From Conexibacter arvalis (GTDB lineage Bacteria; Actinomycetota; Thermoleophilia; Solirubrobacterales; Solirubrobacteraceae): a stretch of 64,000 nt of DNA. Numbering within the stretch: the stretch's first letter is position 1; each line of letters begins with the position of its first letter. Under the pieces are notes generated by a model, which saw nothing but the letters and a program-made list of their open reading frames with translations, did not search any database and was not told the origin of the DNA. Where the stretch lies: positions 496,001 through 560,000 of the forward strand of contig NZ_JACHNU010000001.1 in assembly GCF_014199525.1 (NCBI RefSeq), written 5' to 3'. Positions 14,188 to 62,969 of the stretch are shown here, piece after piece. The position numbers and the translations under genes are program-made.

Positions 14188-15120
14188 ATGCGCGCTCCGA
14201 ACACCTTCGCCGGCTCGACCCTCGACCGCGCGGGAGGGCGCCGGACCGATGCCGGCTGGGTGCAGGAGCGGCTCGCCGACCCCGGCAGCCGCGCGCTGGC
14301 GCTGACGCGCGACGGCATCCTCGTGACCGGCGACCCGCCGGCGCTGGTGCGGATCGCGCTCGGCCAGATCCCGGGCGGCGCGCCCGAGCCGGCCGTGCTG
14401 CTCGGCGTCGGGCCCGACGGCGACGCGCTGTTCGCGGTCGACGTCGAGCATCTCCACGCCCGCCGGCCGCTGATCCCCGGCGCCCGCGCGCTCGGCCTGC
14501 GCGAGGTCGGCGCCCGGCTGCCGGCCGAGGAGGCCGGCCTGGCGGCGCAGGCGGCGGCCCTGCTCAACTGGCACCGCTCCCACCCCCACTGCTCCCGCTG
14601 CGGCGCGGTCACCGACGCCACCGCGGCCGGCCACCTGCGCTGCTGCCCGGTCTGCGGCGGCGAGCACCACCCGCGCACCGACCCGGTCGTGATCATGCTC
14701 GTGCTCGACGGCGACCGCGTGCTGCTCGGCCGGCAGGCGAGCTGGCCGGCCGGCCGCTACTCGGCGCTCGCCGGCTTCGTCGAGGGCGGCGAGTCGCTGG
14801 AGGAGGCGGTCGCGCGCGAGGTGATGGAGGAGGCCGGCGTCGCCGTGCGCGACGCCCGCTACGTCAGCAGCCAGCCGTGGCCGTTCCCGAGCTCGCTGAT
14901 GCTCGGCTTCACCGCGCGCTACGCCGGCGGGGAGCCGGAGGTGCGCGACGGCGAGCTGGAGGACGTGCGCTGGTTCACCCGCGCGCAGGTCGCCGCGGCC
15001 GCCGCGCGCGAGGGCTCGGCCGACTGGGCGGCCCCGCCGGGCGACGCGGAGCTGCTGCTGCCGCCGCCGATCGCGATCGCCCGGCGCCTGCTCGACGGCT
15101 GGCTCGCCGACACCGCCTGA
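14188..15120 (+). CDS. nudC: NADH pyrophosphatase (NAD-capped RNA/NADH-hydrolysing Nudix)
   Basis: 310 residues, the NudC layout: an N-terminal domain, a four-Cys zinc ribbon (HCSRCGAVT and RCCPVCGGEHHP), then the Nudix box GFVEGGESLEEAVAREVMEE AGV and the NudC-specific SQPWPFPSSLM motif. Family members hydrolyse NADH to NMNH and AMP and remove NAD caps from RNA. The ATG at 14188 is chosen because the family N-terminus begins there; longer upstream frame is inside the divergent Nudix gene. The 3' end faces the HemQ gene, with a 54-bp tandem repeat between them. Confidence 0.9.
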   Translation: MRAPNTFAGSTLDRAGGRRTDAGWVQERLADPGSRALALTRDGILVTGDPPALVRIALGQIPGGAPEPAVLLGVGPDGDALFAVDVEHLHARRPLIPGARALGLREVGARLPAEEAGLAAQAAALLNWHRSHPHCSRCGAVTDATAAGHLRCCPVCGGEHHPRTDPVVIMLVLDGDRVLLGRQASWPAGRYSALAGFVEGGESLEEAVAREVMEEAGVAVRDARYVSSQPWPFPSSLMLGFTARYAGGEPEVRDGELEDVRWFTRAQVAAAAAREGSADWAAPPGDAELLLPPPIAIARRLLDGWLADTA

Positions 15121-15132
15121 CCCGCTCCGCTC

Positions 15133-15286
15133 CTACGGCAGGTCGGCCACCACCTCGGCCAGCGGCTTGCGGATCCGCGGGATCCGCTACGGCAGGTCGG
15201 CCACCACGTCGGCCAGCGGCTTGCGGATCCGCGGGATCCGCTACGGCAGGTCGGCCACCACCTCGGCGAGCGGCTTGCGGATCCCG
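15133..15286. repeat. 54-bp tandem repeat, three copies, derived from the hemQ 3' end
   Basis: Unit begins CTACGGCAGGTCGGCCACCA and ends GGATCCGCGGGATCCG. Copies: 15133-15186, 15187-15240 and a partial copy from 15241. The third is the coding end of the minus-strand hemQ gene; the other two lie just past its TAG. Copies differ at one or two bases. 54 bp is 18 codons, so each copy carries the same frame and the same TAG. Confidence 0.95.
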
Positions 15287-15945
15287 GTGAAGAACGGCAG
15301 CTCCTCGCGCGTGTGGCGGCGGGCGTCGGCGGCGCGCAGGTGGCGCATCAGGTCGACGATGCGGGTCAGCTCGTCGGCCTCGAAGGCGAGCAGCCACTCG
15401 TAGTCGCCGAGCGCGAAGGCGCTGACCGTGTTCGCGCGCACGTCCGGGTACTCGCGGCCCATCATGCCGTGCTCGCGCAGCATCTCGGCCCGCTCCTGCG
15501 GCTCCAGCAGGTACCACTCGTACGAGCGCACGAACGGGTAGACGCAGACGTACTTGCGCGGCTCCTCGCCGGCGAGGAAGGCGGGGACGTGCCCCTTCGC
15601 GAACTCGGCCTCGCGGTGGACGCCGATGTTGGTCCAGTGGGCGTCGAGCGAGCGGCCCAGCTCGGTGTGGCGGAAGGCGACGAGCGCGTCCTGCAGCGCG
15701 TCGGCCGTCGGCCCGATCAGCCACAGCAGCAGGTCGGCCTCGGCGCGGAAGCCCTGCAGCGAGTAGCTGCCGCGCACGACGACGCCGGTCGCGACGAGCG
15801 CGGCGTCGGCCTCGGCGGCCGCGGCCGCGCGGCGCTCCTTGGGCAGGCGGCGCGCGGCGGGCGCGCTGAAGGCGGCGTAGAGCGTGTACAGGTTCTGATC
15901 GGTCGTCACGGTCGTCTCCAAGCGGGGTCTGAGCGGTCCGGCCAT
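15241..15945 (-). CDS. hemQ: coproheme decarboxylase (HemQ/ChdC, chlorite-dismutase family)
   Basis: 234 residues, actinobacterial HemQ. The family regions are clear: [16 protein letters not shown] contains the redox-active Tyr (Y136), and [20 protein letters not shown] contains the proximal heme His (H159). It converts coproheme to heme b in the coproporphyrin-dependent pathway, in the cytoplasm. The ATG at 15945 gives a 12-residue leader not typical of the family; the GTG 12 codons in (VTTDQNLY) is a credible alternative. The last residues [12 protein letters not shown] are repeated in frame after the stop codon. No other heme genes are adjacent. Confidence 0.88.
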
Positions 15946-19007: not shown

Positions 19008-19778
19008 TCAGGCCTCCCGCGGCGCCGCGAGGTCGAGCAGCGTCTCCTCGTCGACCCCTCTCCCGGCGACGACGCAGGTGCGCCCGTCGCGCAGCCACAT
19101 CACCGCCTTCGTCCCGTCGTCGAGCTCGTAGACCCACATCGGCTCGCCGCCGCGCTCGACGTAGCGGCCGCCGATCGGCAGCCGCGGCGCCGCGGCGATC
19201 GCGTAGCCGACCCGCTCGCCGGCGTCGTTGGCGTAGACGACCGTCGTCACGTCGCGGTCGCCGACGCGGTCGCTGCGCGTGCCGGTCGCGCGCCAGCCGC
19301 CGGCCTCGGCGGAGGACCAGTCGGGGAAGGGGATGCCGTCGCCGGCGACGTCGAGCCGGCCGTTCGGCAGCGTCGCGGGCGCCGGCGCGGCCGGCCGCTT
19401 CAGCGCGACCTCGGCGACCTGCGGCACGGTCGGCGCGCCGGCCTCGCCGCCGGGGAGCGCGAGCACGAGCAGCAGCGCGACGACGGCGGCCGCCGCGAGC
19501 GCACCGCCGGCCCAGACGAGCGGACGGCGGCGCGACCGCCCGAGCGCATCGCCGGCCCAGGCGAGCGGACCGCCGAGCAACCGCCCGAGCGCACCGCCGG
19601 CCCACGCGAGCGGACCGCGGCGCGACCGCCCGCCCCGGCGCCCGGCGGCCTCGGCCGCGGCGACCGCCGCCGCGACCGACGAACGCAGCCGCTCGGGCGC
19701 CGGCGCGTCGAGCGCCCGCAGCCGCGCGACCAGCCGCGCGACGCGCTCGTCCTCTCTGTCGTTGCGTTCGCGCTCCAT
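19008..19778 (-). CDS. anti-sigma factor-like membrane protein with a 15-residue tandem repeat
   Basis: 256 residues, 10 bp downstream of an ECF sigma gene. Residues 1-45 are charged and helical (cytoplasmic sigma-binding side). Then come three 15-residue repeats, variants of PLAWAGGALGR, the last leading into one membrane helix (ALAAAAVVALLLVLALPGG). The outer part (~150 residues) has DWSSAEAGGWRATGTRSDRV and ends with TCVVAGRGVDEETLLDLA, as in anti-sigma proteins of this phylum. No zinc HxxxCxxC motif, so not a ZAS type. It probably holds the sigma factor at the membrane until an outside signal arrives (family knowledge plus context). Confidence 0.72.
   Translation of the reverse strand: MERERNDREDERVARLVARLRALDAPAPERLRSSVAAAVAAAEAAGRRGGRSRRGPLAWAGGALGRLLGGPLAWAGDALGRSRRRPLVWAGGALAAAAVVALLLVLALPGGEAGAPTVPQVAEVALKRPAAPAPATLPNGRLDVAGDGIPFPDWSSAEAGGWRATGTRSDRVGDRDVTTVVYANDAGERVGYAIAAAPRLPIGGRYVERGGEPMWVYELDDGTKAVMWLRDGRTCVVAGRGVDEETLLDLAAPREA
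19501..19613. repeat. 45-bp in-frame tandem repeat inside the anti-sigma-like gene
   Basis: The block GCACCGCCGGCCCACGCGAG (with 1-3 substitutions) starts at 19501, 19546 and 19591, an exact 45-bp period (15 codons). It encodes the three PL(A/V)WAG(G/D)AL units in front of the membrane helix. Confidence 0.9.
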
Positions 19779-50524: not shown

Positions 50525-50540
50525 CGCGGGCGGGCGGCCC

Positions 50541-50774
50541 GCGCCGCCTCGCCCGCGCCGCCTCCCGCGCCAGCCGCGCCCTCGCCCGGGCCGCCTCGCC
50601 GCGCCGCCTCGCCCGCGCCGCCTCCCGCGCCAGCCGCGCCCTCGCCCGGGCCGCCTCGCCGCGCCGCCTCGCCCGCGCCGCCTCCCCGCGCCAGCCGCGC
50701 CCTCGCCCGGGCCGCCTCGCCGCGCCGCCTCGCCCGCGCCGCCTCCCCGCGCCAGCCGCGCCCTCGCCGGGCCG
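50541..50774. repeat. 60-61 bp GC-rich tandem repeat, ~3.9 copies
   Basis: Unit starts GCGCCGCCTCGCCCGCGCCG and ends GGGCCGCCTCGCC. Copies start at 50541, 50601, 50661 and 50722; the last two have one extra C. It lies in the gap between the convergent gntR and heparinase-like genes (50525-50827). Open frames across it (Arg/Ala repeats) are composition artefacts. Confidence 0.92.
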
Positions 50775-61067: not shown

Positions 61068-62969
61068 ATGTCGTTCCGTCGTGCCGCATCCGCCGTGCCG
61101 CTCGCCGTCGCCGCCGTGCTCGCGAGCGCTGCCGGAGCCTCCGCCGCGCCGGCCGGGCCCGCCGCGCAGGCCGCCCCAGCAGGCTCCGCCGCCACTGCGC
61201 AGGCGGCGCCGTCCGCCCCAGCCGACTTCGAGCAGCGCGCGCCCGCGCTGACCGGCTCCCCGACCGCGCCCGACCCGCACCGACCGGCCGACGCCGCGCA
61301 CGCGGCCGACGCCGGGCATGGGGCCGGCGCGGGGCACGGGGCCGGCGCCGCGCGCGCGGCCGGGGCGGGGCGCGCGGCCGGGGCGGGGCGCGCGGCCGGG
61401 GCGGGGCGCGCGGCCGGCGCTGGGCACGGGGCCGAGGCCGCACTGCGCGCGAGCGCGCCGGTCCGCGCGCCGCGGCCGTTCGACCTGCTCGGCCTCCGCG
61501 CCCGCGGAGCGCGCGACCTCGGCCACGTCGAGGTGCGGGTCCAGCGCGCGAGCGGCCGCTGGAGCCGCTGGGGCGAGATCCCGCACGGCGAGGACGTGCC
61601 GGCCGCCGACGGCCGCGGCGCCGTCTCCGGCCCGCTCTGGACGGGCCGCGCCGTCGCCTACCAGCTGCGCGCCGAGCGGCTGCCGCGCGACCTGCGCGTG
61701 CACTTCGTCGCCGTCCCGCGCACCGCCGCGCCCGCGGCGCCGATCGCCGCGGCCGCCGTCGGCGGGCGACCGGCGATCGTGCCGCGCTCACAGTGGGACC
61801 CGAGCGGGAGCTGCCAGCCGCGCACCCCGCCGAAGTACGGGCGCGTCGACTTCACGGTCGTCCACCACACCGAGTCGCTGACCGGCTACTCGCGTGCGAG
61901 CGCGGCCGCGATGGTGCTCGGGATCTGCCGCTTCCACCGCAACGGCAACGGCTGGCTCGACATCGGCTACAACCTGCTCGTCGATCGCTTCGGGACCGTC
62001 TACGAGGGTCGCGGCGGCGGCGTCGAGCAGCCGGTGATCGGCGCCCATGCCGGCGGCTGGAACGGCGTCTCGGCGGGGGTCGCGCTGATCGGCAGCTTCA
62101 GCAGCCGGCGGCCGACGACGGCCGCGCGGCGAGCGCTGACGAAGACGCTTGCGTGGAAGCTGTCGCTCGCCGGCGTGCCGGCGAGGGGGACGATCGCGAA
62201 GGTCTCCAGCGGCGGCGCCGAGAACCGCTGGAGCAGCGGGACGCGCGTCCCCTTCCAGCGCGTCTCGGGCCACCGCGACGCCGATCACACCACCTGCCCC
62301 GGCGGCGCCCTCTACGCGCTGCTGCCGAGCGTGCGCCGCGAGGTCGACGCGCAGCTCGCCGAGCCGCGCGACCTGCTCACGAACGCGCCGTTCGGCGGCG
62401 TGCTGGCGCAGGGCGGCCCGGCCTACCTGACCGGCCGGCTGGCGCTCGCCGACGGCCGCCGTCCCAACGGCGCGCGGCTGTCGCTGCAGCGCCGCGACGA
62501 CGCCGACGACGCGTGGGAGCCGCTCGAGACGATCAGGACCGGCGCCGACGGGATCTGGTCGGCGAGCGTGCCGGTGACGGTCAACGGCAGCTTCCGCGTC
62601 GTCTCCGACGCGGTCGGGATCGGCTCGCCGGCCGCCGCCGTGCGGGTCGCGGCCGGCGTCACGGCGACCGTCTCGCCGCAGCTGCTGCGGCCGGGCAGAC
62701 GCGTGACCGTCCGCGGCACGACGACGCCGGCCAAGGCGACGGTCGCGCTGCGCGTCGAGCGGCAGGCGCGTGCCGGCGGCCCGTGGCGGCGCGTGCGGGC
62801 GACGACGGTGCGGACCGTCGACGGCGACTGGTCGACGCAGGTGCGTCTGCCCGCGGCCGGACTCCACCGCTTCGTCGTCACGACCGCCGCCGACGACCTC
62901 AACGCCGCCGGCGCCGCGCCGGTCCGCACCGCGCAGGTGCGGGCGGCCGCGCGGTCGACGCGGCGGTGA
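61068..62969 (+). CDS. secreted PGRP-type N-acetylmuramoyl-L-alanine amidase with Ala/Gly repeat linker
   Basis: 633 residues. Signal peptide (ASAVPLAVAAVLASAAGASA). Residues ~60-130 are an Ala/Gly/His/Arg repeat region. A strand-rich domain follows (residues ~135-235), then the peptidoglycan-recognition/amidase-2 domain: AIVPRSQWDPSG, FTVVHHTESLTGYS (zinc His), NGWLDIGYNLLVDRFGTVYE and VSGHRDADHTTCPGGALYA (second His and Cys). Residues from ~445 carry two Ig-like regions. It should cut the amide bond between muramic acid and L-alanine in peptidoglycan. The ATG at 61068 follows an AGGTGTTGGGAGCC patch. Confidence 0.87.
   Translation: MSFRRAASAVPLAVAAVLASAAGASAAPAGPAAQAAPAGSAATAQAAPSAPADFEQRAPALTGSPTAPDPHRPADAAHAADAGHGAGAGHGAGAARAAGAGRAAGAGRAAGAGRAAGAGHGAEAALRASAPVRAPRPFDLLGLRARGARDLGHVEVRVQRASGRWSRWGEIPHGEDVPAADGRGAVSGPLWTGRAVAYQLRAERLPRDLRVHFVAVPRTAAPAAPIAAAAVGGRPAIVPRSQWDPSGSCQPRTPPKYGRVDFTVVHHTESLTGYSRASAAAMVLGICRFHRNGNGWLDIGYNLLVDRFGTVYEGRGGGVEQPVIGAHAGGWNGVSAGVALIGSFSSRRPTTAARRALTKTLAWKLSLAGVPARGTIAKVSSGGAENRWSSGTRVPFQRVSGHRDADHTTCPGGALYALLPSVRREVDAQLAEPRDLLTNAPFGGVLAQGGPAYLTGRLALADGRRPNGARLSLQRRDDADDAWEPLETIRTGADGIWSASVPVTVNGSFRVVSDAVGIGSPAAAVRVAAGVTATVSPQLLRPGRRVTVRGTTTPAKATVALRVERQARAGGPWRRVRATTVRTVDGDWSTQVRLPAAGLHRFVVTTAADDLNAAGAAPVRTAQVRAAARSTRR
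61321..61437 (+). repeat. 18-bp in-frame tandem repeats in the amidase gene
   Basis: GCGCGCGGCCGGGGCGGG repeats about three times with an exact 18-bp period around 61351-61412, flanked by related GGGCACGGGGCCGGCGC units. It encodes (GAGHGA/GAGRAA) repeats, a flexible linker before the folded domains. Confidence 0.85.

What the first reader, a model, noticed from the sequence alone, without database searches (positions are those of the whole stretch)
15133..15290. The 3' end of hemQ is tandemly triplicated, with a stop codon in every copy
The last 18 codons including TAG are repeated twice directly after the stop. Because the period is 54 bp, reading through TAG would add RIPRIRKPLADVVADLP units. 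It may be a recent slippage event, a substrate for stop readthrough that changes the C-terminus, or a mobile micro-satellite that started inside the gene.
Basis: seen in the sequence. Interest (0 to 1): 0.6.

Follow-up and report, generated by a model that had tools for sequence, protein, structure and literature searches.

The report
Stop-spanning tandem repeat after hemQ
A short stretch of DNA containing the end of a haem-synthesis gene and its stop signal has been copied twice just behind the gene; because the first stop stays in place the protein is unchanged, so this is an ordinary, probably neutral, DNA-copying scar of a kind already known in bacteria.

Summary
hemQ (coproheme decarboxylase, 15241-15945, minus strand) is followed by two 54-bp direct repeats, each carrying a copy of its last 44 nt, including TAG (15187-15240 and 15133-15186). 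Only one copy would encode ...LADVV...; the other encodes ...LAEVV.... The unit occurs nowhere else in the 5.2-Mb genome.

It is best read as a minisatellite made by slippage or template switching between the convergent genes hemQ and nudC. A tandem duplication spanning a stop leaves the upstream gene intact, so selection does not see it. In 1.6 Mb of this genome, 5 of 1,428 gene ends have such a copy (periods 48, 53, 54, 55 and 76 bp), against 0 of 1,428 gene starts. In congener G003 the same junction holds one decayed, out-of-frame copy. Four other congeners have none.

Programmed readthrough is not supported: hemQ ends where its family ends, no TAG-reading tRNA was found in 1.6 Mb, and frame is not conserved. 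Repeats overlapping stop codons are already described (Yersinia pestis, PMC3689786). Copy number was not checked against reads.

The parts
15241..15945 (-). hemQ (hydrogen-peroxide-dependent haem synthase / coproheme decarboxylase), intact, stop TAG at 15241-15243
   Evidence: NF042928 HemQ_actino E 1.5e-96, profile 2-219 of 220 on residues 17-233; Pfam Chlor_dismutase E 7e-71
15241..15284 (-). gene-encoded copy of the repeat (44 bp, last 14 codons plus 2 nt, including stop)
15187..15240 (-). first downstream repeat unit (54 bp), ends in TAG; 2 differences from the gene over the shared 44 bp
15133..15186 (-). second downstream repeat unit (54 bp), ends in TAG; 1 difference from the gene over the shared 44 bp
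15231..15240 (-). 10-bp junction segment (CGGATCCCGC on hemQ's strand) absent from the gene copy; with its neighbours it forms an inverted repeat GCGGATCC-CGC-GGATCCGC (8-bp stem)
   Evidence: hairpin -14.4 kcal/mol, z -3.25
15177..15186 (-). the same 10-bp junction segment in the distal unit
14188..15120 (+). convergent neighbour, NAD(+) diphosphatase (nudC-like), ending 12 bp from the array
   Evidence: NF001299 E 2e-70; gene model

Best explanation
A neutral minisatellite (candidate VNTR). Replication slippage or template switching, primed by a short match (GGATCC and its surroundings) between the 3' end of hemQ and the spacer just after its stop, copied the last ~44 bp of the gene behind the stop. 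Later slippage or unequal exchange between homologous units took it from two copies to three and kept them alike. Since the first stop codon stays attached to the intact gene, HemQ is not altered and the copies are free to expand, decay or vanish. Shown: the anatomy, the intact gene, uniqueness in the genome, the decayed copy in a congener, and the same kind of duplication at other gene ends. Inferred: the slippage mechanism, the order of events and neutrality.
For: Array of 54 bp, 96% matches. hemQ is full length and ends where the family ends. The unit is not elsewhere in the genome. Five relatives in the genus have HemQ at 77-89% identity; only G003 has one extra copy, with the same junction, 55 bp away, degenerate and frameshifted, and the other four have none. 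In 1.6 Mb of the genome 5 of 1,428 gene ends have a stop-containing copy of their last 24 nt at 20/24 or better within 220 bp, against 0 of 1,428 gene starts. Periods of 48, 53, 54, 55 and 76 show that frame does not matter. At 760504 the unit is flanked by a 14-bp direct repeat, the classic slippage footprint. Four of the five lie between convergent genes. The genome is rich in arrays of this size: 31 with score at least 150 in 800 kb.
Against: A single simple duplication does not give the exact layout: the 10-bp junction segment CGGATCCCGC is found neither upstream in the gene nor after the last TAG, so a second event (small deletion or second template switch) has to be assumed. The stop-versus-start excess is only borderline on counts (5 v 0, Fisher p 0.06). 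Presence in G003 but not in others that may be closer on a weakly supported tree requires either losses or two independent events.
Confidence: 0.85

Rival explanations
1. The repeated units act in RNA or DNA: each boundary makes a GC-rich hairpin (8-bp stem) that could serve as a two-way terminator or mRNA 3'-end protector between the convergent genes hemQ and nudC.
For: Convergent setting with a 120-bp spacer; junction hairpin -14.4 kcal/mol, z -3.25.
Against: The hairpin is not kept in G003's copy (z -0.39) and the other congeners have no unusually stable hairpin there (z -1.04 to +1.08); the whole array has z of only -1.12; no U-tract terminator pattern.
Confidence: 0.08
2. Occasional readthrough of TAG makes C-terminally extended HemQ (+RIPRIRKPLADVVADLP, then again).
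For: Both units are in frame with hemQ and each holds no stop other than its final TAG.
Against: One third of random periods are in frame; the congener's unit is out of frame; other gene ends have out-of-frame units; no tRNA for TAG among 20 tRNAs found in 1.6 Mb and no PylS above its cut-off in the whole genome; the family's C-terminus is the gene-encoded one.
Confidence: 0.03
3. Assembly artefact: wrong number of copies from short reads.
For: The array (152 bp) is about as long as a short read and the assembly has 18 contigs.
Against: The copies differ from each other at specific bases, and a single-contig congener genome has a copy with the same junction.
Confidence: 0.04

Closest known systems
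VNTR loci overlapping stop codons in Yersinia pestis (PMC3689786)
   Same: Tandem repeat whose unit holds the stop codon of a gene; ten loci overlap stops and six overlap starts, and the authors note that copy-number change at stops might have less effect on the protein.
   Different: Different organism, mostly shorter units among those shown; variation between strains was shown there and is untested here.
MIRU / VNTR loci of Mycobacterium tuberculosis (as described in PMC2734929)
   Same: Intergenic tandem repeats of 40-100 bp with few copies in a GC-rich actinobacterium; VNTR3239 includes 55-bp units.
   Different: MIRUs are a dispersed family found at 41 places; the hemQ unit is present at one place only and derives from its host gene.

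Membership tests
minisatellite / tandem repeat overlapping a stop codon | head-to-tail copies, unit about 10-100 bp, containing the stop codon of a gene | tested here: met
   54 bp, 2.8 copies, 96% matches, TAG in each
VNTR | copy number differs between strains | tested here: inconclusive
   three copies here, two (one decayed) in G003, one in four other congeners; no strains of the same species were available
MIRU-like dispersed repeat family | same unit at many unrelated loci | tested here: not met
   no second locus in the genome; only a 29-bp 90% weak match
programmed stop-codon readthrough | conserved open frame beyond the stop and a decoding route for TAG | tested here: not met
   frame lost in G003, no copy in four congeners, no TAG-reading tRNA in 1.6 Mb
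HemQ (actinobacterial coproheme decarboxylase) | score above the curated cut-off over the full profile | tested here: met
   321.9 bits against cut-off 235, profile 2-219 of 220

The most novel reading that the evidence does not exclude
The 3' end of hemQ in this genus is a recurrent duplication hot spot whose hairpin-forming junction arose twice independently (here and in G003) by template switching, and the repeats act as an adjustable two-way terminator between hemQ and nudC.
Probability: 0.04. Interest if true: 0.4.

Novelty: new member of a known kind. Interest (0 to 1): 0.12.

Why it matters
Little on its own. It is a clean example of why tandem duplications can gather at gene ends: when the unit spans the stop codon the upstream protein is untouched. 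The count made here (5 of 1,428 gene ends, 0 of 1,428 gene starts) is a simple, testable statement about where such scars survive, and the locus could serve as a strain-typing marker in this genus.

Tried and rejected
Mobile or dispersed repeat: rejected, unit is unique. Readthrough: rejected on frame, family end and lack of a TAG-reading tRNA. A remnant of an integration (att) site: considered, not pursued, because the hemQ-nudC order is kept in relatives and no distal copy was seen; in G003 about 0.5 kb carrying a small ORF lies between the copy and nudC. Covariation of the junction segment with the gene copy: in both genomes the 9 bp after TAG (CGGATCCCG here, CGGATTCCG in G003) are the exact reverse complement of the gene's own CGG[G/A]ATCCG (read). 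Templated inversion was considered, but two sequences with one varying pair are too little to claim. Excess of TAG stops among affected genes: three of three at first, then four of five against 23.5% TAG overall; post hoc and left open. Eroded copies in the spacers of the four other congeners: none beyond shuffled expectation. Blast between arrays mostly reflected GC-rich low complexity; the hemQ array matched none.

Full report
Check of the observation. The minus-strand gene at 15241-15945 is hemQ (NF042928 HemQ_actino, E 1.5e-96; Pfam Chlor_dismutase). Directly after its TAG stand two 54-bp units, 15187-15240 and 15133-15186, each ending in TAG. Over the 44 bp shared with the gene, the middle unit differs at two bases and the distal one at one. 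The first 10 bp of each unit on hemQ's strand (CGGATCCCGC) have no counterpart in the gene. The array ends 12 bp from the stop of the convergent nudC-like gene (14188-15120, +).

Is it special in the genome? A DNA search of the own genome (5.2 Mb, 18 contigs) finds the array once and otherwise only a 29-bp weak match. But tandem arrays of this size are common: 31 non-overlapping arrays with score 150 or more in 800 kb, four of them in the window (15133, 19486, 50539, 61285). I called genes by codon usage in 1.6 Mb and asked how often the last 24 nt of a gene recur within 220 nt downstream. Five of 1,428 gene ends do at 20/24 or better: hemQ (two units), a MerR-like regulator at contig position 905290 (48 bp), an alpha/beta-hydrolase-like gene at 760504 (55 bp), a folE2-like gene at 1262664 (76 bp) and an rRNA-methyltransferase-like gene at 278576 (53 bp). 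No gene start has a comparable upstream copy (0 of 1,428). The names of these four genes are from reading the translations and were not searched. Three of the five periods (53, 55, 76) are not multiples of three. Four of the five lie between convergent genes, against 34% of gene ends with a gap of 60 bp or more (p 0.05). The gene at 760504 shows a 14-bp direct repeat at the unit borders (GCCTCGCGCGCGAG), as slippage predicts.

Relatives. The genus is Conexibacter, by the named records of two of the hits. Of seven genomes held, six have this hemQ. In all six the gene's stop is followed by CGG (TAGCGG). G003 carries one further copy, 55 bp on, with the same junction (TAG CGGATTCCGCGGATTCCGGAAGCC...), degenerate (26 of the last 36 nt match its own gene) and shifted by one base out of hemQ's frame. 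The spacers of the other four show no copy beyond shuffled expectation, although G004 has a similar start (CGGCATCCCGCG). The hemQ trees do not group this genome with G003, but support is weak (32-81%). One ancestral duplication with losses and two independent events at the same short match are both possible; the shared junction favours the first, the tree the second.

Mechanism. The shared segment begins at GGATCC, which is present both in the gene and in the sequence just after the stop. Slippage or template switching at that match would put a copy of the gene's end behind the stop, and later exchange between units would give three. One further step is needed because the 10-bp junction segment is not found after the last TAG. 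This is inference. The result is protein-neutral because the gene keeps its own stop.

Function tests. Readthrough: the gene's end matches the end of the family profile and of solved actinobacterial coproheme decarboxylases; the frame is lost in G003; ARAGORN on 1.6 Mb lists 20 tRNAs, none for TAG, and PylS has no hit over its cut-off in the genome. Terminator: the junction hairpin is stable here (z -3.25) but not in G003 (z -0.39), and the array as a whole is not unusually structured.

Known kind. Tandem repeats that hold a stop codon are described: of 16 Y. pestis VNTRs overlapping gene borders, ten overlap stops and six starts, and the authors expect less effect on the protein at stops (PMC3689786). 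Repeats of 40-100 bp in intergenic regions are well known in M. tuberculosis (PMC2734929). The present array is a new instance of that kind. Limits: copy number was not checked against reads, no strains of the same species were available, the gene calls used for the counts are my own simple codon-usage calls, and only 1.6 of 5.2 Mb was scanned for other cases.

Noticed in passing
contig C1 of the window's genome: 905290-905733, 760504-761343, 1262664-1263674, 278576-279265: Four other genes have their 3' end including the stop codon duplicated just downstream (periods 48, 55, 76, 53 bp); four of the five affected genes, hemQ included, end in TAG although TAG is 23.5% of stops.
   Followed up: partly
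L006 after position 2172: In congener G003 about 0.5 kb with a small unidentified ORF sits between hemQ's decayed repeat and nudC; it was not seen in the other relatives that keep the hemQ-nudC order.
   Followed up: no
window 15241-15945: HemQ of this genus matches actinobacterial HemQ at 50-60% but the homologues in other genera of its own family at only about 33%, which hints at horizontal acquisition in the genus or a paralogue.
   Followed up: no
window 50539-50774, 61285-61438, 19486-19632: Other strong tandem arrays (60 bp x 3.9, intergenic; 54/18 bp and 45 bp inside predicted genes).
   Followed up: partly
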